This document shows, piece by piece, positions 1-64,000 of a stretch of 64,000 bases of DNA. The DNA lies in NCBI RefSeq assembly GCF_002368415.1, contig NZ_AP018290.1:558001-622000 (forward strand), written 5' to 3'. A program made the position numbers and the translations under genes. Origin of the DNA: Calothrix sp. NIES-4105 (GTDB lineage Bacteria; Cyanobacteriota; Cyanobacteriia; Cyanobacteriales; Nostocaceae). The notes beneath the pieces are model-generated. The model saw only the letters and a list, made by a program, of their open reading frames with translations, did no database searches and was not told the origin of the DNA. How positions within the stretch are numbered: the stretch's first letter is position 1; every line of letters starts with the position of its first letter.

Positions 1-356
1 CTGCTGTGCAGAAAATCTATGTTTATGATTTTGATTATGTTACGGGTGATATTCATAACCGTAGGGATTTTGTAGATTTGACTAGTGAGTCGTTTGTTCC
101 TGATGGGTTGGCTGTAGATTGTGAGGGGTATATTTGGTCAGCAATGTGGGATGGGTGGTGTATTATTCGTTATAATCCTCTGGGTGAGGAGGTGTTGCGA
201 GTAGAGTTGCCTGTGCAGCGTCCAACTAGTTGTTGTTTTGGTGGGGAGGATAGCTCCCGGCTTTATATTACTTCTGCTTCCACGGGGTTGAGTGAGGACG
301 AGATTCAGAGGAGTTTTTATTCTGGGGATTTGTTTTGTTTAGAGATGGATATGTAA
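1..356 (+). CDS. SMP-30/gluconolactonase/LRE-like protein, 3' end only
   Basis: The reading frame is open to the left edge of the window, so this is the C-terminal part of a gene that begins outside; the GTG at position 6 is probably an internal codon. The translation carries the motif PDGLAVDCEGYIWSA followed by RPTSCCFGG, which are typical of the last blades of SMP-30/gluconolactonase beta-propellers. Family members hydrolyse sugar lactones or related esters using a divalent metal. The last 115 or so residues of a roughly 290-residue protein are present. The substrate cannot be read from this fragment. Confidence 0.8.
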   Translation, partial: AVQKIYVYDFDYVTGDIHNRRDFVDLTSESFVPDGLAVDCEGYIWSAMWDGWCIIRYNPLGEEVLRVELPVQRPTSCCFGGEDSSRLYITSASTGLSEDEIQRSFYSGDLFCLEMDM

Positions 357-458
357 ATTAGTAGCCGTTATTACATCCCAAATCTTAATTATTCCCTTGG
401 CTCGGCACAGTATTGGTTTAGCAGATACGGAAGTCGGAACAATGGGCGCCCGAAGCTC

Positions 459-1277
459 TTAAAGTACCGCTTTCATAGCACGTATCCACTGCTGTGCTAT
501 AAACTTATTGCCTGAATCGTTAAAATGGACACCGTCGCCACTTAAAATATCGCCCTGTTTCAATCGAGCAAGTACTGCAGCGTGCATATCTAGGAAGAAG
601 ACTCGCTTGCCCTGTGCCTGGAGCTTCTGCACACGCTGCTTAAGAAACGCATTGGCTTTCGTTTTCGTTTGATTAGTATCAACACCCTTCTGAATATCCC
701 ATTTAAACGGGGGAATTGAGGCGACCACAACTCTGGTTTTGGGACTTCTTAACAAGATATCATCGATAATCCCTTCAAGGGATTTTGTCAGAACTTGCTC
801 GGTGTTATCACCTCGTACATCACTACCAAAGAAATCATTAGTGCCAAGCATCATCAGCACCACATCAGGCTTGGTCGCTTGAACCCAGTCTCGAATGCTC
901 CCTGGCTTTCGCTCCCATGAGGGGAGACGAACATTTGATTTTGGTTGTTGCAACACTTGCGCCGCCGACCAACCACCATGACACTCATTATCGGGGTCAG
1001 TATATGCGCCGTCTTTTTTAGTTCCCACCCAGTCTATAGTAGACCCAAATTTGGTTTCTTGCACTGCACTACGCAGAACGGCAATATTATTTGCACATAG
1101 AGAGTCTCCTAATGACATCACTTTGGTAGCAGAAGAAGCAGTTCCAACCGGAAAAAAACAAAGTAGTATGGCGGCTAGACTGACATTCCCACACCGAAAA
1201 GTAGGTGTTTTAGAGCAAAAGCAGGAGTTACTCTTCTGTATGCGCGAACTACGGTGGATTTGATTTTGAATACCCAT
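459..1277 (-). CDS. Secreted SGNH/GDSL-family hydrolase
   Basis: A 272-residue protein with the SGNH blocks in order: GDSL near residue 56 (nucleophile Ser), a Gly in GGWSAAQ, GTND near residue 148 (Asn), and DGVHF near residue 250 (catalytic Asp-x-x-His). Upstream of GDSL a hydrophobic stretch (SLAAILLCFFPVGTASSA) looks like a signal peptide, so the enzyme probably acts outside the cytoplasm. The first 30 residues are polar and Cys/Ser-rich, so the true start may be internal. SGNH enzymes hydrolyse esters of lipids, acylated sugars or peptidoglycan; the substrate is unknown. It stands alone, with no obvious operon partner. Confidence 0.85.
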   Translation of the reverse strand: MGIQNQIHRSSRIQKSNSCFCSKTPTFRCGNVSLAAILLCFFPVGTASSATKVMSLGDSLCANNIAVLRSAVQETKFGSTIDWVGTKKDGAYTDPDNECHGGWSAAQVLQQPKSNVRLPSWERKPGSIRDWVQATKPDVVLMMLGTNDFFGSDVRGDNTEQVLTKSLEGIIDDILLRSPKTRVVVASIPPFKWDIQKGVDTNQTKTKANAFLKQRVQKLQAQGKRVFFLDMHAAVLARLKQGDILSGDGVHFNDSGNKFIAQQWIRAMKAVL

Positions 1278-1564
1278 ATATGTTGCTCACTTGATTAATT
1301 ATTAGTATTATTATACTGCTAGGTTCGTGTGTTATTTTTTGTTTCAATGCTTTAAATATACACATTTAATAATTGTTAGTGCGGCATTTTTATTCCTCAC
1401 TGGGACATCTGATGTTAAATATGATACATTTACATAAAATTGTTATGGTAAATTAAGTAACATGAATAAGCGTTTTATAAAAGGGGTGAAAATTAAGTTA
1501 AGAATAATTCAAATTAGATATTTATTGTCTGTAGGTTTAAAAGAGACGCTCTCAAAAACGCCAT

Positions 1565-1873
1565 TTAAGTCAGGCTAAATAATAATAACAAGCATCCAAC
1601 ATAAACTAAAAAAGTAATAATAGCAGCTATAATCACTCCTTTCATTACAGAAGTTTTCTTTTTCTTTTTTAACCAAAAACAAAGTGGAACAACATACACA
1701 AGCTGCCAAATTGGAAATAAGTATATTGGGTAAACTTGAATGCTTAAAGATAAATTATAATTACTTCCTGCCAAAGCCCCAATAATAAATATTAAAATAA
1801 GACCTGCTAAATCAAAAAATAATAGTATAAATAATCCATATATTATCTTTTTTATTTCGCTTATTTTAGACAT
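1565..1873 (-). CDS. Small three-helix membrane protein, unknown function
   Basis: The start at 1873 (MSKISEIKKI) is preferred because the upstream in-frame extension is only the antisense of the P450 remnant. The 102-residue product has three strongly hydrophobic segments separated by short loops, including a run of five lysines (WLKKKKKTS) that should face the cytoplasm. I do not recognise a family. It is divergent from the P450 remnant and very AT-rich. It may be a real small membrane protein or part of the sequence that replaced the P450 N-terminus. Confidence 0.45.
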   Translation of the reverse strand: MSKISEIKKIIYGLFILLFFDLAGLILIFIIGALAGSNYNLSLSIQVYPIYLFPIWQLVYVVPLCFWLKKKKKTSVMKGVIIAAIITFLVYVGCLLLLFSLT

Positions 1874-1907
1874 ATTTAAAGAACTAAAGTACAATCGCCA
1901 AGCACTC

Positions 1908-2516
1908 ATGGCAGAAACTGTTGAACTTTTACTCGCTGGTACAGACACCACTGCTCATACTTTATCCTTTGCGGTAGGAGAGTTAGCCTTAAACCCAAGA
2001 GTTTTTGAGCAAGCACAGGCTACGGTTGATTCTGTTTGGCAAAATTTTGGCGCCGTTAATACAGAAGCCTTAAAACAATTGACTTACATTCGCGCTATTA
2101 TCAAAGAGACTTTGCGCCTTTATTCAGTAGCCTCTGGCTCAACTGCATTGTCGGTTGAACGCGACACTATGATTGAAGGTAAGCTTATTCCTCGTGGTAC
2201 TAAAGTATTTTGGTCAATGCTTGCTGCTGGACGAGACTCAGAAGTTTACCCTCAAGGTGAGAAATTTCTACCGGAGCGTTGGTTAGATAAAAATAAAGAA
2301 ATTAGTTCACTTCCAATGATACACTTTGGTTCAGGTTCTCATCGTTGCTTAGGAGAGCATCTCTCAATTTTGGAAGCAACGATAATGCTGACATTGCTGC
2401 TACGGAACTTCGACTGGGAGTTAGTTAATGGTCGTTCATCTTTAGAACAGTTACAACAAAACCTCCTGATTTATCCGTCCGATGCAATGCCAGTACGCTT
2501 TCGTTTAAAAAAGTAG
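1908..2516 (+). pseudogene. Cytochrome P450, C-terminal remnant
   Basis: Only about 202 residues of a roughly 450-residue family are present. They hold the I-helix oxygen-activation motif AGTDTT, the K-helix ExxR (KETLRL, Glu67-Arg70 of the fragment), PERW, and the haem-binding loop FGSGSHRCLGEH with the axial Cys147. The N-terminal half (helices A to H) is absent; upstream lies a small membrane-protein gene on the opposite strand. A P450 cannot fold without its N-terminal half, so this is most likely inactive. Its stop codon falls at the left terminal repeat of a CTAG-type repeat element (2514-2602). Confidence 0.8.
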
Positions 2517-2602
2517 TGGTTTGTATCAAAAGTTCTGGGAGGTTGGTTATTACCACATTAAAATCCCCCCAACCCCCCAAAATTAATGACATAGACTACT
2601 AG
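2514..2602. repeat. CTAG-flanked MITE-like element, copy a (degenerate)
   Basis: The right end reads CCAAAATTAATGACATAG then ACTACTAG, the same terminal repeat as elements at 9.7-9.95 kb and 28.66-28.95 kb. The left end (TAGTGGTTTGTATCAAAAG) is a degenerate inverted copy. The element is about 90 bp, short for the family, and the stop codon of the P450 remnant lies in its left end. It has no coding capacity. Confidence 0.6.
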
Positions 2603-2614
2603 TAGTCTTGTTTG

Positions 2615-3379
2615 TTAACTTTGTGCATGTCCGGCATCAACTACTATTGTTTGACGGGTTATTGCTCGTGAGGTATCTGAGGCAAGAAACAGATAAATTC
2701 CCACTAATTCATTTGTTGTAAGCTCAATGGGAATAGATAATTGTTGTAGATTCTTATGTTTGGCTTCTGGTGTTACCCATTGATTGAGTTGTCTTTCAGT
2801 CATTATCCATCCAGGCGCCACAGCATTAACCCGAATATAATGCTTTCCTACGGCTTCTGCAAGACTGCGAACCATCCCGATTATCGCTGCTTTAGTTGCG
2901 CTGTAGGCAATCAAATCTGGGTTGGCAAGCCATACCTGATGAGAGCTTGTCATAATAATGCTACCTCCTCCAGCATTGATCATGTCAGGTAATAGCTCAC
3001 GGCAGGTAATAAAATAGTGGGTTACATTTAGTTGAAACAAATCATTCCATTGAGCATCTGACATTTCTAATAATGAATATCTCGGATCGTAACCAGCGTT
3101 ATTGATAAGGACATTCACTACTGGTCTTTCTTTTTTGATAGTCGCTAAAGTTGAGGCCAGTGCATTGGTATCAGTTAAATCCACACAATATACATTGACT
3201 TTGCAGTTATATTTTTCACATTCTTTAGCTATAAGTAAGCCTTTATCGTAATCTTGATCAAGAATGGTTACTTCTTTTGCCTGCTCTGCAAACGTTCGAG
3301 TTAAAGCTTCTCCAATACCGTTACTACCACCTGTGATTAAAATATGCTTGTTTTTTAAATCTGGATAAATAGGATTCAA
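2615..3379 (-). CDS. SDR-family oxidoreductase (classical type)
   Basis: A 254-residue classical short-chain dehydrogenase. The Rossmann nucleotide-binding motif is TGGSNGIG near residue 16, the NNAG motif is near residue 92, and the catalytic Ser (TSSH), Tyr and Lys (YSATK) lie near residues 145-162. The C-terminal SRAITRQTIVVDAG matches the usual SDR closing motif. An aspartate after beta-2 (ILDQDYD) suggests NAD(H) preference. The substrate cannot be assigned. The start has an upstream AAGGAG-like site. It faces the P450 remnant convergently; a shared oxidation pathway is possible but not shown. Confidence 0.9.
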   Translation of the reverse strand: MNPIYPDLKNKHILITGGSNGIGEALTRTFAEQAKEVTILDQDYDKGLLIAKECEKYNCKVNVYCVDLTDTNALASTLATIKKERPVVNVLINNAGYDPRYSLLEMSDAQWNDLFQLNVTHYFITCRELLPDMINAGGGSIIMTSSHQVWLANPDLIAYSATKAAIIGMVRSLAEAVGKHYIRVNAVAPGWIMTERQLNQWVTPEAKHKNLQQLSIPIELTTNELVGIYLFLASDTSRAITRQTIVVDAGHAQS

Positions 3380-3471
3380 TTATTTTCTCCTTAGTTATCG
3401 ACCCTTTTTTATAGATATTACAGTATGAAAGAAGCCCACCAAGATGCATAACATGGTGGGCGCCACTCATG

Positions 3472-6400
3472 TTACACTGATTCCGGAAATTTAACAGCGG
3501 CAGCTAAAGCTTTTAACCCAACTGTGGTAGGTTCGCTCAAAAAGTAACTTAGATGGTCGCAAGCTACTTCTTGAATGTTGGGAGGATGCGCGCGTCCTGT
3601 GGGAATACTTGTAATACTATCCACTTTTACAGCAATATCATTTGGTATGCCAAAGAAAGGTATTTCTACAACTTTATTAAATAAACGTTGTTGTAATCGC
3701 TGTATTATCGATTGGTCATCTGCTTGTTTCTCTAATGCTGCGGGAATAATTGAGGTATTACCAGCAATAATTGAGTAAGGAATGCCTGGGTCGTGACTCG
3801 CTGCGAGAGATTTGATAAAATCTGAATTTGGGTTCATTTCGGTCATGGCTACTCGAATATTTTTTTCTAATGTACCCATTAATATAGCTATCACTTTTGC
3901 AGGATAAGCAATTGTAGAAAGACCGTTAAGTGCAATAGCTAGAGTCAATTTTACCCAATCTTCTACTACAGACCAAGGTGAACCTGCATTTGGTGTACCC
4001 AACATTATCAGGTGTTGGACAACTTTATTGCCTCCTTCGCGCTCGATAAACCAGCGAGATATCAAACCTCCCATTGAATGAGCAATAATGTGTAGTTGTT
4101 TCCCGTGGTTTTCTGATAAACCCACATCTATTAGTCGTTGTTTTAAATATTGGGCGTTCTGCTCAATGCTAGTATTCAAATTTTCGTAATCAAAGGTGAG
4201 AACTAAATCATAAAATTCGCTGATGGAATGTTTTCCATTGGGTTGCCCATCCAATGTTATAACGGGTTGTTTGATTGTAGACACTAAGCTTTCTGTATCA
4301 CCGATAATTCCGTGAATATACAGGGCAATTCGTTTTGCTTGCTTTACCCGTTGCTGAATAGAATCCTTATCGAAATTATAAGTAACTTTCTCGTCTTCTC
4401 CAACTTCAGCCATTGCTAAAATTGGATAATTAAATTCTCGCCCTAAACCTTGGCTAATCACTTTTTGAAAGAAGATACGGATGGAACCTTGCAGACTACG
4501 TTCTCCTTCACTGACAGGCGCCGGTAATCTTTCTAACTCAATTTCTAGTTTACCATCTACAGTTTTTCCATGACCTAATGGTAAGAAAAATTCACCATCA
4601 TAACCTACAGGAAGTATGTATTCATTGTCTGCTAATTGTGCATCAACTAATAATTTTAAAGGCGCCTCCTTTGTAACAGCTTCATAATTTGTAACATCGC
4701 TGAGTTCCAATACACTTAGTCCTGGGTCAGTACCGCGACTAGCTGTAAATTGGAAGGGACGAATAACTTCTGGATTTTCCCGCAAGATGGGGGGTACAAT
4801 TTTATTACCTAAATCTCGGCTAACTTGGGGTGTGGTTGTAAGGCGAACATTTGCACTGAAGCTGGAATGGGGTTGTAATTTTACCCCTACTCCTAATTGT
4901 TGTGAGTATTCTTTAGAAACTGGGATAGAATCTAAGGGACGGACTGTAGTAATTGTAATTTCTTTTGCATACCAATCGTCTAACTTGTCGCTGCTAATTT
5001 TGGATCTAACTTCACGATTTTGAGTGCGATCCATCAAACGCTCAAGACTACTTTGATTTGGAGATTCTACTTTTCTTGATATCGGTCGAGGAGCATCAAG
5101 TGGGTCTTGATTTAGCAATCTAGCATCAAATTCATCATTGCTTACAATCAATTTCAGAATATCTTTGTACTCAGTAATTCCTTGTTGCCAATACTCATCA
5201 GGAACTTCAAGAATCAAACTTTGTCCATCTAAAGGATTAGCTTCTTCTCCTGGTTCTAGTCGAATGCTACCTGATTCAAAAAACGGGGTACTAATAGCAA
5301 AACTGTCAGAAAGATTTACTAAAGCACAATAAAGTGGTTTGTTACTTGTATTAGTGAACTTAATTTTAAATTCTGGTTCTTGCCACTTTCGGTCTTGGTA
5401 TTTATATGACAAACGCATAGAGTTTGCTTGCAATATGTTCTTATCAGGAAAGATAAGTTCCATTTTGACATCATCAGCTTTAATCCAATTGGCAGCAGTA
5501 TTTGCAAGTTGAGCAATTGTAGTCCAGCGGGCAATATGTTCTAAGCGTTTAATTGATGACGCTGCGTTATCTTCTGTGTAACCATCAATTTGAGCTACTA
5601 GGGGTCGGTCATCTATTGCTGTAGTTATTATATACTGATTATCGCGACACAATAAGCAAAAATCGGCTTTGCTAATTTCTTGTTCCGCGCGCACATAAGC
5701 TGACGGTTTTCCATCGAGTCCTGCTGTTTTTAGATTTTCGAGTGCCAAATCTATACCCGAAGAATCTCCTTTGAAGTACACTGCTAGAGGCGGGAGTGGT
5801 AAACTAGCGACGACAGCTTTAAAGGTACTGTCTTTTGTCAGTGGCACTCCTTTGATATCTATATCTATTTTGCTCTTAGTTGGCAATACCTGAGTTACTT
5901 TCGCAGTACCCACAGCCTTTGATGGGTCGCGCGTATCTTCGATTGTTGCATCAAAGGGAAACAGGACGAGTAAAGTAGTTTCACCTTGAATGGGTTGTTG
6001 TATTCCGTGAACAGCACCACCATCAATTACCCAGTCAGAATTGTCTTGCTGAACAATAAAGTATGGTTCAATATCGGCAATGGCGCCATCAAGGAAAAAC
6101 TTGTTACTATCGTTCGTGTCATTTACTTCTAATTGTGGAGACTGCTGTAACATTGCGCTGCGAACAATGGCATTTACACGTCCAAATAAATCTCGATAAG
6201 TCAGCTTTCCGTTAGCTTTAGAAAGTGTATCCATCAAATAATAAGAGAAATAACCCCGATGTTTACCTGGATATTCCTTTGCTGTTTCATAGTCTTGACA
6301 AGCTGCTAAAAGTACATGACGACCGACAGGTATATTCCACCCACTTGGATGTTTTTCTATATCGCGATCTGATAGTTTGTTTAAATCGTCGAGGGTAAAA

Positions 6401-7281
6401 ATAAAACTATCTAATGGACGTGGACGTTTATCTGTATCTAAGCGACGTTCTAAGGCTTTATCGTCTGGGTCTTTAGTACCGGAACCAGAGTGACAGCAAT
6501 CCATAATAATGGTAATATGTGCGTCTTCTCTAATTTCCGAAATTAGTTTCGCTAACTCCTTATCTGCCAAATCCCAACCGTTTTCAGTACGACTGTCGTA
6601 GCATACTAAAGTCTCATCTAGATGGTCTGGTTCTAGCTGCCAAAATTCAGAAGGCGCCGCTTCTTGAGAACCGTGACCACTATAGTAAAATAAAACTACA
6701 TCATCTTTTTGCGCTTGACAAAGATGGTTACGGAAACCATTAATAACACCTTCGCGAGTTGCTTGTCCATCTTTCAGCGTTAGTAAGTGCAATTGATATT
6801 CTTTTTGATCAAATCGCTCGTTTAGATACTCTTCAATTGCAATAATATCATTTACACAACCTTGGAGACGATGATTTGGGTCGGGATAATTATCGATACC
6901 AACAAGTAAAGCGTATAACTTACGACTTCCAATACCTCGTCCGACACTTAACACCGCAGTAACAACCTTGAGAACTCTATCAATTGCCTGTGTAATTTTA
7001 GCTATATTTTCAGATGTTTCAATTTCGCTGTTTAAATTAGCTATTCCTTTTTTAAGTGAAGCTTCGTTTGAATTTAAACGTGTTAATAATTGGGAAATAT
7101 TTCTATTTTCAAGTTCTCTAATTTGAATAGCAATTTGCGCGCGTGCGTCGTTAAAAGCTTCTATTTGTGCGCTGCTTTGACTTTGCATTGCCGCTTGAAT
7201 ACTTGGCTGATTAAGTTTTAAGTCAGTTTCTCTTAATTGTTGCAAAATTGTTTGAGCATCAGCTACTGAATTAATAGACAT
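3472..7281 (-). CDS. Metacaspase-like caspase domain fused to alpha/beta-hydrolase (lipase)
   Basis: A 1269-residue protein. Residues 1-115 are helical and coiled-coil-like. Residues 120-400 form a peptidase C14 domain: YALLVGIDNYP, the catalytic His203 in YYSGHGS, and Cys263 in MDCCHSG. Residues 400-950 are beta-rich with no family I recognise. Residues 985-1260 form an alpha/beta-hydrolase: oxyanion YIHG, nucleophile Ser1069 in AHSMGG, LGTPNAGSPW, and a probable catalytic His1243 in CDHLSYF. Both catalytic sets look complete. No signal peptide is seen. An AGGAGT ribosome site precedes the ATG. It is the last gene of a three-gene minus-strand series after a patatin and a lipoprotein (gaps 249 and 68 bp), so protease activation of a lipid hydrolase is an attractive inference. 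Confidence 0.85.
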   Translation of the reverse strand: MSINSVADAQTILQQLRETDLKLNQPSIQAAMQSQSSAQIEAFNDARAQIAIQIRELENRNISQLLTRLNSNEASLKKGIANLNSEIETSENIAKITQAIDRVLKVVTAVLSVGRGIGSRKLYALLVGIDNYPDPNHRLQGCVNDIIAIEEYLNERFDQKEYQLHLLTLKDGQATREGVINGFRNHLCQAQKDDVVLFYYSGHGSQEAAPSEFWQLEPDHLDETLVCYDSRTENGWDLADKELAKLISEIREDAHITIIMDCCHSGSGTKDPDDKALERRLDTDKRPRPLDSFIFTLDDLNKLSDRDIEKHPSGWNIPVGRHVLLAACQDYETAKEYPGKHRGYFSYYLMDTLSKANGKLTYRDLFGRVNAIVRSAMLQQSPQLEVNDTNDSNKFFLDGAIADIEPYFIVQQDNSDWVIDGGAVHGIQQPIQGETTLLVLFPFDATIEDTRDPSKAVGTAKVTQVLPTKSKIDIDIKGVPLTKDSTFKAVVASLPLPPLAVYFKGDSSGIDLALENLKTAGLDGKPSAYVRAEQEISKADFCLLCRDNQYIITTAIDDRPLVAQIDGYTEDNAASSIKRLEHIARWTTIAQLANTAANWIKADDVKMELIFPDKNILQANSMRLSYKYQDRKWQEPEFKIKFTNTSNKPLYCALVNLSDSFAISTPFFESGSIRLEPGEEANPLDGQSLILEVPDEYWQQGITEYKDILKLIVSNDEFDARLLNQDPLDAPRPISRKVESPNQSSLERLMDRTQNREVRSKISSDKLDDWYAKEITITTVRPLDSIPVSKEYSQQLGVGVKLQPHSSFSANVRLTTTPQVSRDLGNKIVPPILRENPEVIRPFQFTASRGTDPGLSVLELSDVTNYEAVTKEAPLKLLVDAQLADNEYILPVGYDGEFFLPLGHGKTVDGKLEIELERLPAPVSEGERSLQGSIRIFFQKVISQGLGREFNYPILAMAEVGEDEKVTYNFDKDSIQQRVKQAKRIALYIHGIIGDTESLVSTIKQPVITLDGQPNGKHSISEFYDLVLTFDYENLNTSIEQNAQYLKQRLIDVGLSENHGKQLHIIAHSMGGLISRWFIEREGGNKVVQHLIMLGTPNAGSPWSVVEDWVKLTLAIALNGLSTIAYPAKVIAILMGTLEKNIRVAMTEMNPNSDFIKSLAASHDPGIPYSIIAGNTSIIPAALEKQADDQSIIQRLQQRLFNKVVEIPFFGIPNDIAVKVDSITSIPTGRAHPPNIQEVACDHLSYFLSEPTTVGLKALAAAVKFPESV

Positions 7282-7349
7282 GGTATAAGTACTCCTAATA
7301 AATTACTATTTCTTGTGTTGGTTAAGTTACTTTTTGATTGCTACGTCAT

Positions 7350-8216: not shown

Positions 8217-8465
8217 AAACAAAATGATAGTTCCTTTGTTCGGTAGGCTATATAGTTGCGAAAATGAAATTTAATACTTTTGTTCTATACGACGATGCCG
8301 AGTTGTTTTAGTACCTCCTTGAATATTCTTCGTTGTCAGTATATTAAACTTAACTTACATGTTTCAGTAAAAAGAACTAGACAAAAGTTAAGTTCTTACC
8401 AATTAGTTACTAAGAATTGTAAACAAGAAAATGCTAAATGAATTGCAATTTCTATTTTTATTAAT

Positions 8466-13799: not shown

Positions 13800-13832
13800 A
13801 AAAAATGTGCGCCAATGGCGCACAAATTTTTA
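13800..13832. terminator. Bidirectional hairpin terminator between convergent genes
   Basis: A perfect 8-bp stem TGTGCGCC/GGCGCACA with a 3-nt AAT loop (13806-13824) is flanked by AAAAA on the left and ATTTTT on the right, so it can end transcription from both sides. The same stem recurs at 32775-32793. It contains half of the abundant GGCGCC palindrome. Confidence 0.75.
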
Positions 13833-26844: not shown

Positions 26845-26875
26845 GGCGCCTAGTTCACAGGCGCCAATATTTTTG
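26845..26875 (+). terminator. Rho-independent-like terminator made of two GGCGCC words
   Basis: A 7-bp perfect stem GGCGCCT/AGGCGCC with loop AGTTCAC (26845-26865) is followed by AATATTTTTG. It fits termination of the upstream monooxygenase gene and shows how the abundant GGCGCC palindrome is used to build hairpins. Confidence 0.65.
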
Positions 26876-32769: not shown

Positions 32770-32800
32770 ACATTTGTGCGCCATTGGCGCACAAAATATT
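32770..32800 (-). terminator. Hairpin terminator after the EamA transporter
   Basis: Stem TGTGCGCC/GGCGCACA with loop ATT at 32775-32793, flanked by A/T runs, 39 bp beyond the stop of the transporter gene. The stem is identical to that at 13806-13824, so this hairpin is itself a repeated element. Confidence 0.65.
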
Positions 32801-42597: not shown

Positions 42598-42627
42598 TGT
42601 AGAGACGTTACATGTAACGTCTCTACA
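42598..42627. repeat. Perfect 30-bp palindrome at the GH5 gene end
   Basis: A flawless palindrome with core GAGACGTTACATGTAACGTC; it overlaps the TAG stop of the cellulase gene by 5 bp. The same 20-bp core occurs at 51312-51331, right after the truncated four-GAF gene. It can form a 13-15 bp hairpin and may end transcription. Confidence 0.9.
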
Positions 42628-44110
42628 TGGATACGCTGATTTGTGTAGGTTTATAGTTTGCCCCTAATTTGTCAGCACAATAGCCTATTTCTACAGTCTT
42701 ACCTGGTTGAATTACTTTTGCCCACTCAACTGGGGTTGCTTCGTATGTTGAATCTTTATTTGTATAAGTTGCATTCCAGGTTTGCAGGATTTTAGCTTGA
42801 TTAATTATAAAGTTTAGCTGCCAATTTTTGGTTGCAATTGTGCCTTTGTTGGTGACGCGGAAGTTTATACAAAATCCTGCGTTCCAGTCTGCTTGTATTA
42901 CTACTTCTACTGTTAATATAGGCGCCGGAGTTGGGGTTGGAGTTGGAGTTGGTATTGGAGTTGGTATTGGAGTTGGCGCCGGAGTTGGAGTTGGTATTGG
43001 AGTTGGCGCCGGAGTTGGAGTTGGAGTTGGTATTGGAGTTGAAGGTTGTATAGTTAGTAAAGTTGCAAGAAGTTCTTGTTTTTCTGTGTTTATATTTATC
43101 CAGTCGTCTAATAATATGCCACCTGTATCAGAACTATTTGGATTCCAACACCAATAAGTAAAGGATAGGTTTTTTTGTTTAATGAAATCAATAAGTTGAC
43201 GTTGCCAAATTCCTTCTTTGGAAGTCGTATCTGTTTGCTTGCCTCCAAATTCACCAATTAATACTGGCGCAATTTCATTTTTCGCTATATAATAAAAACC
43301 TTTTTCCCAACGAGTGTAAAGGTTTTGAGGAAATGTTTCTTCACTAAACCAAGGTTGGTCTGCTACTCCTGGCCCATATTCATGGGGAGAATATACAACT
43401 TTATTGGAAATGTTTAATCGTACAGGGTTACTACCAACACCTTCTAAATTACCTCCCCACCAATGTCCTGCTAACTGTTGATTTGGTACATTCTTGGCAA
43501 CTCCTTCGACTACAATTAACCAATTCGGGTTTATTTCTAAAATCGCATTGCCACAACGTTCTGCTGCTAATCTCCAGTCGGTTGTTGAATCTCCTGTACC
43601 CCAACTCGCTTGTCCATGTGGTTCGTTTTTTAAATCAGCAGCAACTATATTTCCTAAATTTTTATAGCGATTAGCTAAAAGTTTCCAAGTATCTATCCAG
43701 TCAGCTTCGGTGAATCCATCACCATACCATAATTCGGGTATTGTTGAATCATTGAGTCTATGGTTATCGAGCATTATTAATAGCTCGTTTCTAGCGGCTT
43801 CTTGGATAATGATATCCATTACCTGTAATGGTGTTTTGTCTTGGAAGTCTCGGTTGGCGCCTATACCAAAGTCTATCGAGCTAATATTATTTGAGCGTAG
43901 CGCTTGAACAGAATAAGGTAAACGAATGATGTTATAGCCTAAGCTTTTAATCTGACGTAGCATGTCTTTATAGTCTCGCTTCCATAAACCATGTGGCACA
44001 TGCACTTCGGTTTCCATCCCAAACCAATTAACTCCTCGCAAGCTAACAGCATCACCATTGGCATCTACTATCTGCGACCCTTTTGTTGAAAGCGGAGTTT
44101 TGATAGCCAT
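42623..44110 (-). CDS. GH5-family cellulase with Pro-Thr linker and C-terminal CBM2
   Basis: A 495-residue glycoside hydrolase. The GH5 fold (residues 5-345) starts [20 protein letters not shown] and has the acid/base Glu in [10 protein letters not shown] and the nucleophile Glu in VLIGEFGG, with HEYGP between them. A linker of about 45 residues of [10 protein letters not shown] repeats leads to a CBM2-like module ([32 protein letters not shown]). It should hydrolyse beta-1,4-glucan and bind cellulose. No signal peptide is seen at the N-terminus, which is odd for such an enzyme. The linker DNA is a GGAGTT/GGCGCC repeat. A perfect palindrome overlaps the stop. Confidence 0.9.
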
Positions 44111-58085: not shown

Positions 58086-58170
58086 AACTGTTTCTCTATT
58101 TGATAGATGTATTATTATGCATTTATCGCTGTTTTGGGGTAAAATTACTGTTTATTTTTATTAAACCTGT

Positions 58171-58205
58171 GTAGTTGGGTTACGCAGCAGCATAACCCAA
58201 CCTAT
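58171..58205. repeat. Intergenic stem-loop repeat (GTTGGGTTA/TAACCCAAC)
   Basis: A 9-bp perfect inverted repeat with an 11-nt CGCAGCAGCA loop lies 4 bp past the stop of argD. The arms match those at 26788-26815. It may end the argD transcript. Confidence 0.75.
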
Positions 58206-58208
58206 GTT

Positions 58209-59468
58209 TTAGTTGCTAGCAAACGCGCGTTCAAGTGCATGAAGTGCTAAATTAATCTCTTCTTCGCTAACAATTAATGGTGGTACAAAACGAATTACTT
58301 TAGGTCCTGCGGGGACTAATAATAATCCTTCTTTGATAGCAGCATTAACTATATCACTAGAAGTTAACTCAATATTTTCGTGTAATTCCATACCATTAAT
58401 TAATCCCCAGCCTCGGACATCACTGATAAGGTGTGGATATTTAGCGGCTAATTGCTTTAATCCCGCGCGTAATTGTTCTCCTCTAGCTTGAACGTTTGCA
58501 AGTATATTTTCTTTCTCTATGGTTTCGCATACGGCTAACGCAACTCCACAAGCAAAAGGATTACCCCCAAATGTCGAAGCGTGTTCTCCTGGTTGGAAGA
58601 CATCACAGAATTTTTTGGCTAACATGGCGCCTATTGGTATTCCACCACCCAAACCTTTGGCACTAGTCAAAATATCTGGCTCAACACCAAGCTGTTCATA
58701 TCCCCACAGTTTTCCACTGCGTCCCATTCCAACTTGCACTTCATCAAAAATCAATAGTACTCCTGTTTCATTACAAATTTGGCGGAGTTTACGGAAGTAG
58801 GAAATATCCCCAGGTCGAACTCCTCCTTCTCCTTGTAATGGTTCGATTAATATTGCCGCAACTCCATAGTCTCCTTCGTCGAGTTCACCAATTGCAGCTT
58901 CAACTGCGGCGAAGTCGTTGTATGGTACATAACTAAAGCCAGGTACTAGGGGATCAAAATTCTTTTGATATTTTGGTTGTGCTGTTGCTGTAATAGTGGC
59001 TAAAGTCCGACCGTGAAAACTCGAATGTGCTGTTAGAATAATTGGACGTTCTATTTTTAATACTGTATGCGCGTATTTACGTGTTAGTTTAATTGCGGCT
59101 TCGTTTGCTTCGGCGCCGGAATTACAAAAGAAAACTCGGTCGAGACAAGAGTGTTTAACTAGCCAGTTGGCTAATTCTCCTTGTTCAGGAATGTAGTACA
59201 AATTTGAAACATGGTGTAGTTTCTGAATTTGACGTGTAACAGCTTCAACCATTACTGGGTTAGCGTGTCCAAGTGTACAAGTAGCAATTCCTGCGACAAA
59301 ATCAAGGTATTCGCGTCCTTGTGTGTCCCAAACACGACAAAGAGCTCCTCGTTCTAAAGCTATTGCGTATCGTCCGTAAGTGGACATTACAGCTTTATCA
59401 AAGCCATTGTTGTCAAAACTGTGTGATGTAGGTGATGTTGGTTGTAATGTTGCTAGCTCAATGCTCAC
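58209..59468 (-). CDS. argD: Acetylornithine aminotransferase
   Basis: A 419-residue class III PLP aminotransferase. RYAIALERGALCRVWDTQGR and LDFVAGIATCTLGHANP open the family pattern; VFFCNSGAEANEAAIKL, SFHGRTLATITAT, LLIFDEVQVGMGRSGKLW and SAKGLGGGIPIGAM (PLP-Lys) follow, with STFGGNPFACGVAL near the end. These fit ArgD, which converts N-acetylglutamate semialdehyde to N-acetylornithine in arginine synthesis. Close relatives also use succinyl-diaminopimelate or GABA. It is monocistronic; a stem-loop follows. Confidence 0.9.
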   Translation of the reverse strand: MSIELATLQPTSPTSHSFDNNGFDKAVMSTYGRYAIALERGALCRVWDTQGREYLDFVAGIATCTLGHANPVMVEAVTRQIQKLHHVSNLYYIPEQGELANWLVKHSCLDRVFFCNSGAEANEAAIKLTRKYAHTVLKIERPIILTAHSSFHGRTLATITATAQPKYQKNFDPLVPGFSYVPYNDFAAVEAAIGELDEGDYGVAAILIEPLQGEGGVRPGDISYFRKLRQICNETGVLLIFDEVQVGMGRSGKLWGYEQLGVEPDILTSAKGLGGGIPIGAMLAKKFCDVFQPGEHASTFGGNPFACGVALAVCETIEKENILANVQARGEQLRAGLKQLAAKYPHLISDVRGWGLINGMELHENIELTSSDIVNAAIKEGLLLVPAGPKVIRFVPPLIVSEEEINLALHALERAFASN

Positions 59469-59607
59469 AGGGAAGGCGCCTCCTAGAAGTGTCTCATGTA
59501 GCTACTTAATATACGCAGGCAAATTTGCTTTTTACTAAATAGCACGAGTGATTAACCAATACTAAATCTTAGTTTAAACGTTTAAATATCTCAAATGCGA
59601 GTAACGT

Positions 59608-60690
59608 GTGAGAAAAAGAACTTTATATTCAACGCTTGAACAAAAATATCAGCGTATCCAAAAAGAGTTGATGGCAGGAACGCTTACACTTGTAGGTGTT
59701 TTCCTCATCGGTACGAGTTGGTACTCGCTGGTTGAAGGTTGGTCTTGGCAAGATGCAGCATACATGACTGTTATTACCCTAGCTACTGTCGGTTATGGTG
59801 AAACACATCCTCTAAGAGCCAGAGGTAGATTATTCACAATTGCGCTAATCTTAATGGGTGTGATTACTATTGGTTATATAGTCAATCGATTTACAGAAGC
59901 TGTAATCGAAGGCTATTTCCAAGAAGGTATTCGACTTAGACAACGGCGGCGGCTAATGAATTCTTTATCAGGACATTATATCATTTGTGGGTTTAGTCGA
60001 ACGGGTCGTCAAATTGCCAAGGAATTCCGCGCGGAAAGTGTCCCGTTTGTAGTTATTGATTCGGAACTTGAGTCAGTACAGATTGCCCAAAGAGAAGGGT
60101 ATACAATTTACCAAGGAGACGCAACCCTTGATGAAACTCTACTGCAAGTTAGGATTGAAAAAGCAATTTGCATTGTTGCGGCTCTTCCATCGGACGCAGA
60201 AAATCTCTATACTGTACTTTCTGCTAAAACTTTAAATCCTAGTATTCGTGCCATCGCGCGCGCTAGTACCGAAGAAGCAGTGCAAAAATTGCAGCGTGGC
60301 GGCGCCGATGTTGTCGTTTCGCCTTATATTACAGGTGGAAAGCGAATGGCAGCAGCAGCACTGCGACCCCAAGTTATGGACTTTGTTGAAGGTGTCCTTA
60401 CTGGTGCTGACCGTCAGGTTTATATGGAGCAACTTGTACTTGACCCAGCAGTTTGTCCTGTTGTTGGGTTAACATTGCAGAAAGCTGGCTTACGCGCTCA
60501 AAGTGGTGCATTAGTATTAGCTATTCAACGCGCGGACGGTTCTGTCATCGGTGGACCAACGGGAGATACGCTATTACTGCCAGGGGATTTACTCATCTGC
60601 ATGGGAACCGCAGAACAACTGCGAAGTCTCAACGAAATTCTCGAACCCATCAACACCAAAACCAAGTCAAGGCGGCGTCTGAATCAATGA
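59608..60690 (+). CDS. Potassium channel protein with TrkA-N/TrkA-C (RCK) domains
   Basis: A 360-residue protein starting at GTG 59608. Two TM helices frame the pore loop with the selectivity filter TVGYGE (residues 60-65). The RCK domain begins HYIICGFSRTGRQIA (Rossmann), with DSELESVQIAQREGY, GDATLDETLL and ARASTEEAVQKLQRGGADVV, and a TrkA-C part ends with DTLLLPGDLLICMGT. It is a two-TM ligand-gated potassium channel likely controlled by NAD(H), ATP or c-di-AMP. It precedes the DevC gene by 28 bp, so the two are probably co-transcribed. Confidence 0.9.
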   Translation: MRKRTLYSTLEQKYQRIQKELMAGTLTLVGVFLIGTSWYSLVEGWSWQDAAYMTVITLATVGYGETHPLRARGRLFTIALILMGVITIGYIVNRFTEAVIEGYFQEGIRLRQRRRLMNSLSGHYIICGFSRTGRQIAKEFRAESVPFVVIDSELESVQIAQREGYTIYQGDATLDETLLQVRIEKAICIVAALPSDAENLYTVLSAKTLNPSIRAIARASTEEAVQKLQRGGADVVVSPYITGGKRMAAAALRPQVMDFVEGVLTGADRQVYMEQLVLDPAVCPVVGLTLQKAGLRAQSGALVLAIQRADGSVIGGPTGDTLLLPGDLLICMGTAEQLRSLNEILEPINTKTKSRRRLNQ

Positions 60691-60718
60691 TGGATATAAT
60701 ATACGGATGATTGCGTAA

Positions 60719-61885
60719 ATGGTAGGTAAGTTTTTTGGCAAGATTCCCCTCGCTTGGCAGCAGTTAATGAAGGAGAAAACACGTTTGGCTGTAGCTGTTG
60801 CGGGTATAACATTTGCAAATATACTGATGTTTGCTCAAATGGGTTTTGAGTCAGCATTGTTTGAAAGTGCAATTGCGCCTCACAAAAGTTTCGATGCTGA
60901 TTTAGTATTAGTAAGTCGTAATTTTGAGACTATATACTCAATCAAGGATTTTCCTATTGAACGGTTGTACCAAGCGCGCGGATTTGCTCTCGTTGAGAAA
61001 GTTAGTGCTGTGTATATAGCTTTGGGTAGATGGAGTAACCCTGAAACTGAGGGACTACAAACGATTTTGGTTATTGGGACTGACCCAGCAAATAAAATCT
61101 TTACATCTGGTCAACTTAATAGTGATTTGAATAAGTTGCAAATTCAGAACCAAGTATTATTTGATAAAAGCGCTTTACCTAAAAACAGTTATATTGCTTC
61201 GTTGTTTGAAAATCAATCTATACCAGAAACCGAGGTGAATCAAACTAAGGTACGTATAGGTGGTTATTTTTACCTAGGTAAATCATTTGCTACCTACGGT
61301 AATGTGATTGCGAGTGATTCTACTTTTTTACTGCTTTTCAAAAGTCATGAACCGAATCAAATTGGTACAGGTTTGATTAAACTGAAACGAGGCGCCAATA
61401 TTAAACAGGTTAAAAATAACTTAAAATTAGGTTTGCCGAATGATGTTTTGGTATTAACGCGCGATGAATATATAGATATGGAGAGAAACTACTGGGGAAA
61501 AACAACTCCCATTGGTTTTATGTTTGGAGTGGGTGTAATAGTATCGTTTATAGTTGGCTGCGTTATAGTTTACCAAATTTTATACTCAGATATTTCAGCG
61601 CATTTAGCTGAGTATGCAATGCTTAAAGCTATAGGTTATACAGACAATTACTTACTCTCAGTTCTTGGGCAAGAAGCTTTCATATTGGCTGTTTTAGGAT
61701 ATATACCGGGTGTAATGACTGCGTTAGCTTTTTACAAACTTGCAGCATCTACAACGAGACTACCCGTATTTATGACATTGGAACGTGGCGCCTATGTTTT
61801 TGTGCTAACACTGTTAATGTGCTTTATATCGGGTATCATTGCCATGCAAAAGCTACGCACCGCAGACCCGGCAGATTTAATGTAA
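60719..61885 (+). CDS. devC: DevC-type ABC transporter permease, orphan
   Basis: A 388-residue permease with the DevC layout: N-terminal TM (RLAVAVAGITFANILMFAQ), a large extracytoplasmic domain (LFESAIAPHKSFDADLVLVS, FPIERLYQARGF) and three C-terminal TM helices of the FtsX type with LAEYAMLKAIGYTDNYLLSV and a tail ending RTADPADLM. In heterocyst-forming cyanobacteria DevBCA exports glycolipids through TolC. Here neither DevB (adaptor) nor DevA (ATPase) is adjacent; upstream, 28 bp away, is a potassium channel gene. The export partner must be elsewhere, and the substrate is unknown. Confidence 0.85.
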   Translation: MVGKFFGKIPLAWQQLMKEKTRLAVAVAGITFANILMFAQMGFESALFESAIAPHKSFDADLVLVSRNFETIYSIKDFPIERLYQARGFALVEKVSAVYIALGRWSNPETEGLQTILVIGTDPANKIFTSGQLNSDLNKLQIQNQVLFDKSALPKNSYIASLFENQSIPETEVNQTKVRIGGYFYLGKSFATYGNVIASDSTFLLLFKSHEPNQIGTGLIKLKRGANIKQVKNNLKLGLPNDVLVLTRDEYIDMERNYWGKTTPIGFMFGVGVIVSFIVGCVIVYQILYSDISAHLAEYAMLKAIGYTDNYLLSVLGQEAFILAVLGYIPGVMTALAFYKLAASTTRLPVFMTLERGAYVFVLTLLMCFISGIIAMQKLRTADPADLM

Positions 61886-61904
61886 CTTTATATAAAGCGG
61901 AGAA

Positions 61905-62513
61905 TTAACTATTTACGATTGGTTGTTGAACGTCTACTTCTTGCCAACCATGCAATGAAGCAACACTCTTCAACATCCACTCAATTCCTACAGGAGGCGC
62001 CGAAGAAATTAGAATACCGGGATAAACAGCAGTACCCCAAGTCGGATGAAGTACAACGCGACACTTATTTTTAATAATGGGATAACCTAACAAAGCTTTA
62101 ACAACAGCAGTATCATCATGAGGAAACTCACCAGGACGTGATAGAATAGGATAACCACTTCGTGGGTCAACTAAATCTGAAAAATACCCTGCATCCCGCA
62201 AATTAAAAGCAACATCAAACCCATAGCGAATAAATTGCTCACGCAAAATTTCCTTTTCTGCATCAATAAAAGCATTATCTTTTAATAACTCGCAACGTGC
62301 TTGTGCGAGTACAACAGCAACCCACATCGACTTATTCTTCCAGTCCGGAAATATCCGCTCGCGGTTGGTACAGATATATTGACTTGGAGAATGAATTGAA
62401 ATTTGAATAGCTCGTCCCCCTTTGCCAACCAAATGGATAGGATAGCTTTCATCCGAAGTTTTAATTGTGAAATAATCCACCGATTTAATACTATTTTTTA
62501 CAAGAGAGTACAA
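61905..62513 (-). CDS. MMADHC-like protein, unknown function
   Basis: A 202-residue protein starting at TTG 62513 with an AAAGGAC site. Blocks CTNRERIFPDWKNKSMWVAV, LREQFIRYGFDVAFNLRDAG and VDPRSGYPILSRPGEFPHDD resemble the cyanobacterial family annotated as methylmalonic aciduria and homocystinuria type D (MMADHC) protein. In animals MMADHC steers cobalamin to its two enzymes. Whether the bacterial proteins do anything of the kind is not established. The conserved DPRSGYP and HPTWGTAVYPG motifs suggest a real, selected gene. It is convergent with devC. Confidence 0.65.
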   Translation of the reverse strand: MYSLVKNSIKSVDYFTIKTSDESYPIHLVGKGGRAIQISIHSPSQYICTNRERIFPDWKNKSMWVAVVLAQARCELLKDNAFIDAEKEILREQFIRYGFDVAFNLRDAGYFSDLVDPRSGYPILSRPGEFPHDDTAVVKALLGYPIIKNKCRVVLHPTWGTAVYPGILISSAPPVGIEWMLKSVASLHGWQEVDVQQPIVNS

Positions 62514-62710
62514 ACTTGTCCTTTGTAACGATAATAACTCCTATCTTTTAAGAAAAAACACATTTTTTTTGCAATTTTATAATTTATATGCTAGATTTTA
62601 AAATTTTTATATTCTTTTTAATATGATTTTTATCTTTTCTTAACACTTGGGTAGTTGTTTATACTAAAATCTCGAATATCCGAACAAAACACATTATTTG
62701 TAGGTAGGGG

Positions 62711-62809
62711 AGCCACTGCGCCCTTACGGGTTCTCCGGTGAGTCCAGTTGGCGGTGTCGGCTTCCGTCCCGCCAAACTGGCGAACCCGAAGGGCATAAAG
62801 CAAGTGGCG
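62711..62809. repeat. GC-rich nested stem-loop element
   Basis: Three stems are stacked: GCCACT/AGTGGC (62712 and 62803), GCCCTTACGGGTTC/GAACCCGAAGGGC (62720 and 62782) and CCAGTTGGCGG/CCGCCAAACTGG (62744 and 62769). The element is about 60% GC in a surrounding 610-bp gap (62514-63125) that is otherwise very AT-rich and shows no gene. It could be a structured RNA, a strong terminator or a mobile palindrome. Confidence 0.7.
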
Positions 62810-63125
62810 TTAGAGGAACGACACCCAACACGCACATACACACAAAACTTTCACAAACCAGCTTGCTTTGTAACGTTTAAGCATATTTACCAGAAATTAG
62901 TACAAAGTTTATATCTCCCTTAAGTATGACTCTACACACTTACCTATTCCGTCAGTAATAATTGGACTATCAAAAAACAACTTTTAATCTTTCTAATCAA
63001 AGGTGCTTTTATACCTCGCACGAATCTTGACTTAGATTTCGGCTAATTGTGTAATGTTAGCAGCTAGCAGACTTTGCACTTAACAAACGTTTTTAATTAA
63101 ATCATCAGGATAATTTGGTTTGAAC

Positions 63126-63377
63126 ATGCAATATCGTCAAAATAATAACACAAACAAAGTAATCGGCGCCTTTATTTTAACAAACTTAGTAGTGACAGGC
63201 TATTTTAGCGTCCAATTTTTTGGTTCTTGGATTAATTACTATAAACAAACTTATACTACTACAAATACTTACCCAACTTCGCTTCCTTGGATAAGTACAA
63301 AATCAGACTGCGAACATCGAGGTCGAGATTGGCGTAATGGAAAATGCTGGGACTCAGAACATGATATGTTGTTCTAG
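63126..63377 (+). CDS. Small single-TM protein with two cysteines, unknown
   Basis: An 83-residue protein from ATG 63126. One hydrophobic helix (VIGAFILTNLVVTGYFSVQFF) near the N-terminus is followed by an Asn/Thr/Tyr-rich stretch and a tail with CEHRGRDWRNGKCWD. The tail probably lies outside the membrane, where its two cysteines could pair. Family not recognised. It is followed by a terminator shared with the convergent gene. Confidence 0.5.
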   Translation: MQYRQNNNTNKVIGAFILTNLVVTGYFSVQFFGSWINYYKQTYTTTNTYPTSLPWISTKSDCEHRGRDWRNGKCWDSEHDMLF

Positions 63378-63387
63378 AAAAAAAATT

Positions 63388-63425
63388 AGACTCCCGACTT
63401 TTAAAAAAGTTGGGAATCTAAAAAG
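63388..63425. terminator. Bidirectional hairpin terminator
   Basis: AGACTCCCGACTTTT pairs with AAAAGTTGGGAATCT, preceded by a run of eight A and followed by AAAAAG, in the 56-bp gap between convergent genes. Confidence 0.75.
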
Positions 63426-63433
63426 CACAAATA

Positions 63434-63640
63434 TTAATTCAGCGTTAAAGCACTTACAGGTACTTCATCCCAAGACGTAACCTTGCGTAGTCTTGCTTCC
63501 CAACCCCACGCTTTTTGGACTTCGGTCAAATTTTCCCGAAAAGATTCGTGGCAATCTTTGGCATGAGACTCACTACAGGTAGCGATACATGCATGAATCA
63601 TACCAGATGCATCGATTTGTTCGTTTACCCAAATAGTCAC
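63434..63640 (-). CDS. Small conserved hypothetical protein with three cysteines
   Basis: The GTG at 63640 is chosen because a GGGGG site lies seven bases upstream; an earlier GTG at 63658 lacks one. The 68-residue product (MTIWVNEQIDASGMIHACIA, CSESHAKDCHESFRENLTEV) has cysteines and histidines grouped as C-x3-C-x3-H-x3-C-H, which might bind metal. It is not a recognised domain. Cytosolic by composition. Confidence 0.55.
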   Translation of the reverse strand: MTIWVNEQIDASGMIHACIATCSESHAKDCHESFRENLTEVQKAWGWEARLRKVTSWDEVPVSALTLN

Positions 63641-63839
63641 GATAATTCCCCCAAACACTTGAGTTATCTAAATATTACCCGATTTTCTACCTCAAGTGGG
63701 TGTTGGTAAAGCTATATCCTGAATATCTTTACAAATTTCAAACGTTTTGTAAAATGGTTGTCATTGCTATAATAATGACAACTTAATGACACATAGATTT
63801 AATACGATTGTAATTATAATACTAATGAATGTATTAAGA

Positions 63840-64000
63840 ATGCAAAAATATATTTTAAATCTTATGTTGAAGCGTTTACCTAAATCGCTGTATGTTGTCG
63901 CTTTTTTCACTTTAAGTTTGATAACAGGCTGCGTGAATAAACAAAGTAATGATAGTGTATCTAGTCAGATTAAAGTTAATACACTTGCAACAAACGAAAC
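63840..64000 (+). CDS. Lipoprotein, N-terminal part only
   Basis: ATG 63840 opens a frame that runs off the right edge (53 codons). A hydrophobic core (SLYVVAFFTLSLITGC) ends in a lipobox with Cys33, so the product is a lipid-anchored envelope protein, perhaps a solute-binding protein. The visible mature part is too short to identify. Confidence 0.6.
   Translation, partial: MQKYILNLMLKRLPKSLYVVAFFTLSLITGCVNKQSNDSVSSQIKVNTLATNE

What the first reader, a model, noticed from the sequence alone, without database searches (positions are those of the whole stretch)
1..64000. GGCGCC replaces HIP1 as the iterated palindrome
I counted roughly 90 GGCGCC sites by eye in 64 kb, spread over genes and gaps alike. 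At about 38% GC, chance would give about three. The usual cyanobacterial palindrome GCGATCGC was not seen at all. Sites often occur in hairpins (26845, 13806, 32775) and even in coding repeats (42921-43020). This looks like a lineage-specific HIP variant, possibly tied to a DNA methyltransferase or repair bias.
Basis: partly seen in the sequence, partly recalled or inferred. Interest (0 to 1): 0.75.

Follow-up and report, generated by a model that had tools for sequence, protein, structure and literature searches.

The report
GGCGCC, a genus-wide substitute for HIP1
In one cyanobacterial genus the six-letter word GGCGCC is scattered through the genome about once every 600 to 900 bases in place of the usual eight-letter repeat, apparently because a different DNA-methylating enzyme took over; this is a natural experiment on what such repeats are for.

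Summary
In detail: 91 GGCGCC and no GCGATCGC in the window; 18,131 and 125 in the 12.04 Mb genome. The core idea is in print: Elhai 2015 reported GGCGCC as an "alternate HIP" in Calothrix PCC 7103, a member of this genus.

New here:
- Genus-wide: 7 of 7 genomes (1,150-1,711 per Mb), at most 111 per Mb in 210 other family genomes.
- All 7 carry a GRCGYC-type m5C methyltransferase but no RE_HindVP partner, and lack the C5 methyltransferase matched in 203 of 210 relatives.
- In samples of three genomes half of Gly-Ala pairs are GGC-GCC; 1-2% expected.
- Aligned sites outlast other hexamers in coding DNA; only the six bases are protected.
- The commonest loss product in the closest pair is GGTGCC, as expected if GG(m5C)GCC deaminates.

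Most likely GGCGCC is the methylated mark of this solitary enzyme, held as a whole word after HIP1 was lost. Methylation, and selection versus biased correction, are not shown. An orphan enzyme alone is not sufficient; 15 polarised changes were all losses.

The parts
1..64000. 91 GGCGCC sites, first base at: 445, 2049, 2814, 3459, 4517, 4661, 6082, 6653, 7725, 9492, 9638, 10942, 11047, 12175, 12885, 13572, 14068, 14785, 15132, 15503, 16142, 16639, 19053, 19648, 19738, 20177, 21733, 21994, 22506, 22903, 23129, 23200, 23815, 24369, 26138, 26845, 26860, 27294, 28271, 29148, 29284, 29638, 30030, 30103, 30303, 31560, 32421, 32468, 32729, 33402, 35543, 36285, 36849, 37056, 37871, 38629, 38697, 39115, 40045, 40124, 40257, 40416, 42451, 42921, 42975, 43005, 43856, 44698, 45068, 45791, 46316, 46584, 46929, 50750, 52171, 52497, 53606, 54531, 54611, 56037, 56161, 56874, 57405, 58626, 59112, 59475, 60301, 61391, 61787, 61996, 63165. 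The methyltransferase proposed to act on them lies outside the window (G000:C1:10505801-10506793, minus strand).
   Evidence: exact count
26845..26865 (.). two GGCGCC sites 15 bp apart that can pair as a 7-bp hairpin
42921..43010 (-). three GGCGCC sites inside a GGAGTT-type repeat of a coding region (ORF 42623-44110, minus strand, cellulase plus CBM_2 domains)

Best explanation
GGCGCC is the alternate HIP of this Calothrix/Dulcicalothrix genus. The ancestor lost the C5 methyltransferase that accompanies HIP1 in its relatives (inferred to be the CGATCG enzyme DmtC). It kept, as a solitary chromosomal gene, a GRCGYC-type m5C methyltransferase whose restriction partner is gone. That enzyme most likely methylates the central C (GG-m5C-GCC on both strands). 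The methylated word then filled the genome to 1.1-1.7 per kb and is held there as a whole word, most likely by weak selection for the methylated mark in the role that HIP1 has elsewhere. Deamination of m5C keeps turning sites into GGTGCC, which itself turns over quickly. Shown: genus-wide excess, HIP1 loss, gene contents, conservation limited to the hexamer, GGTGCC as the commonest loss product in the closest pair. Inferred: enzyme specificity, methylation, selection as the holding force.
For: 7 of 7 genus genomes at 1,150-1,711 GGCGCC per Mb, at most 111 per Mb in 210 others. HIP1 at 3.6-22.6 per Mb in the genus; all but 4 of 210 others are above 200 per Mb. A GRCGYC-type methyltransferase matches in 7 of 7; the 6 sequences used form one clade (100/99). 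Outside the genus an ORF of one family lies beside it in 21 of 38 loci, and 5 of 5 of these that were scanned are RE_HindVP. RE_HindVP matches in 43 of 210 other genomes and 0 of 7 here. M.BsaHI, of this family, methylates the central C of GRCGYC and protects GGCGCC from HhaI (PMC2413257). The HIP1-associated C5 methyltransferase matches in 203 of 210 others and 0 of 7; in 91 held genus loci its best hit is 34% identical, against 45-80% among the HIP1-rich genomes. GGCGCC is conserved 0.90, 0.86, 0.82 against 0.73, 0.54, 0.51 for other all-G/C hexamers with CpG in three genome pairs (Fisher p below 1e-17 each). In sampled ORFs of three genomes 49-54% of Gly-Ala pairs are GGC-GCC against 1.3-1.5% expected. 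For Gly-Ala pairs with unchanged amino acids, conservation per occurrence (my arithmetic) is 0.91, 0.90, 0.90 against 0.82, 0.58, 0.60 for non-site pairs. Of GGTGCC words 50%, 46%, 39% are GGCGCC in the partner genome, against 3-5% for T-to-C in control contexts. Bases beside conserved sites are not protected.
Against: No methylation data. Specificity rests on family, neighbours and one related enzyme. An orphan enzyme is not enough: 16 other family genomes have a match (some only fragments) without a RE_HindVP match and have 0.3-43 sites per Mb. G079 has the enzyme, no restriction enzyme and no match to the HIP1-associated methyltransferase, yet keeps HIP1 at 969 per Mb with 20 GGCGCC per Mb; G097, with enzyme fragments only, is similar. 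Searches scored only the best 10 and 8 candidates per genome, and an m4C CGATCG enzyme was not sought. Of 15 polarised changes on the G060 and G065 branches all are losses and none a gain, which does not fit a steady state; 24 of 153 positions, with the word in both ingroup genomes but not in G000, could not be polarised and may hide gains. In noncoding DNA of the closest pair conservation is not clearly raised: 41 of 66 and 43 of 50 by direction, control 0.66. The excess of GGTGCC words over expectation is modest (1.3-2.0; sister words NGTGCC 1.0-1.6), and in distant pairs it is a minority of unmatched sites (23 of 71, 9 of 68). The other GRCGYC words are depleted (0.08-0.53), not enriched. 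Sites with near neighbours are not clearly lost more often, so no density-dependent benefit is visible.
Confidence: 0.55

Rival explanations
1. Elhai's ratchet: G-m5C-dependent mismatch repair preserves new mutations that create G-m5C, so GGCGCC accumulates as a by-product without any function, up to about one site per 1,000 bases.
For: Predicts methylation at the central C, which M.BsaHI shows for this family, a density of the order of one per kb, and the loss of the HIP1 enzyme as the opening. Spacing is slightly more even than random in G000 (dispersion 0.82-0.91).
Against: The substitution rate shows no dependence on distance to conserved GGCGCC beyond what six control words show. Only the six bases are protected. 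No gains among 15 polarised changes. A second enzyme copy, suggested as possibly critical for PCC 7103, was not matched (E up to 1e-50) in 2 of 7 genomes (G060, G063), one of which has 1,701 sites per Mb. Elhai's statement that exceptional HIPs occur sporadically and not in clades does not hold for this genus.
Confidence: 0.25
2. GGCGCC is a DNA uptake or recombination signal, and biased uptake of site-bearing DNA drives and restores the word (molecular drive, as proposed for uptake sequences of Pasteurellaceae and Neisseriaceae; from general knowledge).
For: Whole-word conservation limited to the hexamer in coding DNA and occurrence in genes and gaps fit a drive acting on the word.
Against: Does not predict the swap of methyltransferases or GGTGCC as the commonest loss product of the closest pair. 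No uptake specificity was tested; 20-kb samples of the replicons C2 and C3 differ widely (0.6 and 3.05 per kb).
Confidence: 0.1
3. A base-specific correction of T:G mismatches at the methylated site (very-short-patch type) turns GGTGCC into GGCGCC.
For: GGTGCC and GGCGCC exchange far faster than control T/C pairs.
Against: Vsr (PF03852) has no match in 7 of 7 genus genomes. GGTGCC is not depleted (1.3-2.0 times expectation). Losses by other base changes are also suppressed, roughly 3- to 30-fold or not seen at all, on small counts, which a T:G repair would not explain.
Confidence: 0.06
4. Compositional or codon-usage accident without link to methylation.
For: GGC and GCC are valid Gly and Ala codons, and 43-47% of sites are in the Gly-Ala frame.
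Against: 37-48 times over a masked order-2 background, nearly as dense outside ORFs, and GGC-GCC 35-39 times over what codon usage gives.
Confidence: 0.02

Closest known systems
Alternate HIP GGCGCC of Calothrix PCC 7103 (Elhai 2015, PMC4390886)
   Same: Same word, same genus (PCC 7103 is genome G061 here), HIP1 nearly absent, CGATCG enzyme gene broken, GRCGYC methyltransferases present
   Different: Reported for one genome plus 19 kb of strain D253 and taken as sporadic; here 7 of 7 genomes of the genus, a single enzyme match in 2 of them, and turnover of sites is measured
HIP1, GCGATCGC, of most cyanobacteria
   Same: GC-rich palindrome of the order of one per kb, tied to a C5 methyltransferase in Elhai's survey
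   Different: Other word, other methyltransferase, 6 rather than 8 bases; HIP1 is at 31-163 copies per genome here
BsaHI/HgiDI-type restriction-modification (GRCGYC; PF00145 with PF09519)
   Same: Methyltransferase of the same family, with the target-recognition region conserved across the alignment
   Different: No RE_HindVP match in any of the 7 genomes; the target word is enriched, whereas it is near absent in most genomes that keep the pair (median 0.7 per Mb)
DNA uptake sequences of Pasteurellaceae and Neisseriaceae (from general knowledge)
   Same: Short word far over chance
   Different: No uptake evidence; palindromic and a likely methylation target here

Membership tests
Alternate HIP (sensu Elhai 2015) | Gross over-representation of a GC-rich palindrome genome-wide | tested here: met
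   18,131 sites in 12.04 Mb; 37-48 times background in samples of three genomes
Alternate HIP (sensu Elhai 2015) | HIP1 depressed in the same genome | tested here: met
   31-163 GCGATCGC per genome in 7 of 7
Alternate HIP (sensu Elhai 2015) | A methyltransferase able to methylate the word is present | tested here: met
   GRCGYC-type enzyme in 7 of 7 by homology only; activity not tested
Alternate HIP (sensu Elhai 2015) | Sites are methylated in the cell | not testable with these tools
   only indirect: GGTGCC is the commonest loss product in the closest pair
GRCGYC C5 methyltransferase (M.BsaHI family) | C5 methyltransferase domain | tested here: met
   PF00145, E 1.2e-65
GRCGYC C5 methyltransferase (M.BsaHI family) | Target-recognition region as in family members paired with RE_HindVP | tested here: met
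   59-90% identity over 19 sequences, with YYRH.R.Y.R.[AG].FSI.EPSPT.R shared; the RE_HindVP-type ORF beside 21 of 38 relatives. M.BsaHI itself was not aligned
GRCGYC C5 methyltransferase (M.BsaHI family) | Methylates the central C of GRCGYC | not tested
   shown in print for M.BsaHI
GRCGYC restriction-modification system | RE_HindVP restriction enzyme beside the methyltransferase or in the genome | tested here: not met
   PF09519 in 0 of 7 genus genomes
Very-short-patch repair hot spot | Vsr endonuclease gene | tested here: not met
   PF03852 in 0 of 7 (it rings in 5 of 14 control genomes)
DNA uptake sequence | Preferential uptake of DNA bearing the word | not testable with these tools
   no assay

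The most novel reading that the evidence does not exclude
The HIP word of a cyanobacterial genome is set by whichever solitary m5C methyltransferase is resident: lose the CGATCG enzyme, keep an orphan GRCGYC enzyme, and the whole genome is rewritten from GCGATCGC to GGCGCC, with a methylation-linked whole-word restoring force that is neither Vsr nor regional mismatch repair and that works across all six bases.
Probability: 0.3. Interest if true: 0.8.

Novelty: new member of a known kind. Interest (0 to 1): 0.58.

Why it matters
What HIP1 does is a long-open question (general knowledge). A whole genus that replaced it gives a contrast with two candidate gene changes (one methyltransferase lost, one orphaned) and many sites that can be compared between close species. 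The data argue against two points of Elhai's published model (that alternate HIPs do not persist in clades, and that protection works regionally), and they make selection versus biased repair testable with a methylome and a knockout.

Tried and rejected
Rejected: chance or composition; a general hairpin role; canonical Vsr repair; the L011-type methyltransferase as the genus-specific factor, since it matches in 167 of 217 family genomes; the L012-type methyltransferase, which has an Eco29kI-type restriction ORF beside it in 5 of 7 genomes (one of these ORFs was scanned; target CCGCGG recalled). The distance-to-site gradient in substitution rate first looked like regional protection, but control words show it too.

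Independent origins elsewhere, not settled: among 388 genomes of the class G435 has 9,489 sites (2,497 per Mb), denser than the genus, while three members of its genus in the sample have 76-93 per Mb. Its CCGCGG control is also high (2,450), and an 8-kb sample is 55% GC with 18 GGCGCC (3.5 expected by base composition) and 8 CCGCGG. Composition explains part; contamination or a second origin are open. Genomes of family f16 reach about 1,900 per Mb with controls about half of that; their GC was not checked.

Caveats on methods: ORFs were called by length only (120 aa or more); aligned stretches are BLAST pieces of at least 400 bp and 75% identity; 335 positions without an outgroup alignment were dropped and 153 kept; the tree used 42 of 80 loci plus three G000 genes, and 'noRE' there means no clustered ORF within 3.2 kb. 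In HK-06 (G062) the copy at the conserved place is split over two contig ends and the full-length copy lies on another contig. The L012 type is only a fragment in G062.
Full report
What is there. The window (G000:C1:558001-622000) holds 91 GGCGCC and no GCGATCGC. The genome holds 18,131 and 125. In 442 kb GGCGCC ranks first of all 6-mers (683 sites, 21 times an order-2 model). With the sites masked the excess is 37-fold in G000 (842 kb), 48-fold in G060 and 42-fold in G065 (800 kb each). Sites occur in all three ORF frames and outside ORFs. Of 1,129 Gly-Ala dipeptides in the sampled ORFs of G000 558 are GGC-GCC, where codon usage predicts 14; the figures for G060 and G065 are 644 of 1,293 and 637 of 1,187. 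This is a DNA-level effect.

Who has it. All 7 genomes of the genus carry 1,150-1,711 sites per Mb; none of 210 other genomes of the family exceeds 111 per Mb (genome sizes as rounded in the answers). HIP1 is at 31-163 copies per genome in the genus, and above 200 per Mb in all but four of the other 210 (G182, G184, G191, G194). Among 388 genomes drawn from the class one other, G435, has a higher density, but with high CCGCGG and 55% GC in an 8-kb sample; it is unresolved.

Gene content. Three C5 methyltransferase types occur in every member, one of them as a fragment in G062. The L012 type has an Eco29kI-type ORF beside it in 5 of 7. The L011 type is widespread, matching in 167 of 217 family genomes. 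The L002 type, 331 aa in G000, lies next to a RuBisCO-like gene in 7 of 7 and a GHL10-like gene in 6 of 7 held stretches. Its homologues elsewhere have an adjacent ORF of one family in 21 of 38 loci, RE_HindVP in the five scanned, which marks it as the GRCGYC family. The genus has no RE_HindVP match (0 of 7, against 43 of 210 others). In the tree the genus sequences form one clade, with paired homologues among the nearest lineages. M.BsaHI of this family methylates the central C and blocks HhaI at GGCGCC (PMC2413257), a point that Elhai listed as unknown. The C5 methyltransferase that is the only one in HIP1-rich G034, and that I infer to be the CGATCG enzyme DmtC, matches in 203 of 210 other genomes and in none of the 7 (best 8 candidates scored per genome). 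In 91 held genus loci its best hit is 34% identical, against 45-80% among six HIP1-rich genomes. Elhai found that gene broken in PCC 7103 (section 11) and mentions an m4C CGATCG enzyme there, which I did not look for.

Same enzyme, opposite signatures. Among family genomes with a match to both the GRCGYC enzyme and RE_HindVP the median is 0.7 GGCGCC per Mb (39 genomes); with the enzyme match alone outside the genus it is 8.5 (16 genomes, some with fragments); in the genus it is 1,545. Of the 80 enzyme-bearing loci, 62 have no GGCGCC at all, and the five genus loci rank highest by observed/expected. So the orphan enzyme is not sufficient; loss of the HIP1 enzyme is the obvious second condition. 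G079 seems to meet both and still has HIP1, which either speaks against this or reflects a gap in a draft assembly; G097, with enzyme fragments, is similar. A second enzyme copy is not needed: G060 and G063 have one match each.

Turnover. In aligned DNA GGCGCC is conserved at 0.90 (93.5% identity, G060-G065), 0.86 and 0.82 (86.7% and 85.4%, both with G000), against 0.73, 0.54 and 0.51 for other all-G/C hexamers with CpG. For Gly-Ala pairs with unchanged amino acids the per-occurrence values, worked out, are 0.91, 0.90, 0.90 against 0.82, 0.58, 0.60 for non-site pairs (counted per pair, as that call prints them, the site values are 0.84, 0.82, 0.82). Mismatch at these sites does not grow from the closest to the most distant pair (p 0.74), while it does for controls (p 0.001). 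Loss by central C-to-T runs at the control rate in the close pair (0.031 against 0.034) and below it in the distant ones (0.026 and 0.013 against 0.054); other single changes are roughly 3- to 30-fold below their controls or not seen, on small counts. GGTGCC is the fast partner: conserved in only 0.34, 0.12 and 0.26, and GGCGCC in the other genome in 0.50, 0.46 and 0.39. It makes up 53 of 100, 23 of 71 and 9 of 68 unmatched sites; in the distant pairs GGT also appears with a second change, such as GGTGCT. Polarised with G000, 15 of 15 changes on the two ingroup branches are losses, 8 of them C-to-T or its complement; 24 of 153 positions with the word in both ingroup genomes but not in G000 cannot be polarised. 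Neighbouring bases are not protected, and control words show a like distance gradient. Spacing is close to random (CV 0.91-1.00) with fewer pairs under 50 bp than expected. In noncoding DNA the sample is small and mixed: 84 of 116 in the close pair counting both directions (41 of 66 and 43 of 50; control 0.66) and 49 of 66 in the distant ones (controls 0.36 and 0.34).

Reading. The gene swap, the central-C signature and the one-genus distribution make the methyltransferase link the best account. Protection of all six bases and of nothing else favours a force on the whole word (selection for the methylated mark, or a drive) over base-specific repair or regional mismatch repair. I cannot separate selection from drive, and the absence of polarised gains is unexplained.

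Literature. Elhai 2015 (PMC4390886): outline with abstract, passages, sections 11, 12, 17, 19, 23 and part 1 of 2 of section 18 seen. Neely and Roberts 2008 (PMC2413257): passages and section 6 seen. My searches of the open library listed no other paper on GGCGCC as a HIP as far as their titles and abstract starts show; papers outside that library were not seen. Uptake sequences, Vsr repair, the target of Eco29kI and what AcyI is are from general knowledge.

Noticed in passing
window 13806-13824 and 32775-32793: Two near-identical TGTGCGCC-N3-GGCGCACA hairpins, the only two in 842 kb of this genome and none in 800 kb each of G060 and G065.
   Followed up: partly
window and 842 kb of G000: TTCGAA is absent (0 in 842 kb of G000, 0 in 800 kb of G060, 1 in 800 kb of G065), and TGCGCA, GAGCTC, CTCGAG, AGATCT and GATC are strongly depleted, as if many restriction systems had shaped the genome.
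   Followed up: partly
842 kb of G000: CGCGCG is 7-fold over an order-2 background in G000 and 4-5-fold in G060 and G065; cause unknown.
   Followed up: no
G194 (genus g49, 10.7 Mb): Another HIP1-poor relative (50 per Mb) without GGCGCC excess (30 per Mb) that still has a match to the HIP1-associated methyltransferase.
   Followed up: no
G435 (family f5, genus g60); L333: 2,497 GGCGCC per Mb against 76-93 in three members of its genus, with CCGCGG also high; an 8-kb sample is 55% GC with 18 GGCGCC where 3.5 are expected. Second origin, contamination or composition not settled.
   Followed up: partly
G561 (family f27) and G448 (family f30), same class, other orders or families: GGCGCC 3,074 against control 165 and 1,169 against 25: possible weaker enrichments, base composition not checked.
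   Followed up: no
L208 (G000 C2) and L209 (G000 C3): 20-kb samples of two small replicons differ five-fold in GGCGCC density (0.6 and 3.05 per kb); low density may mark recently acquired DNA.
   Followed up: no
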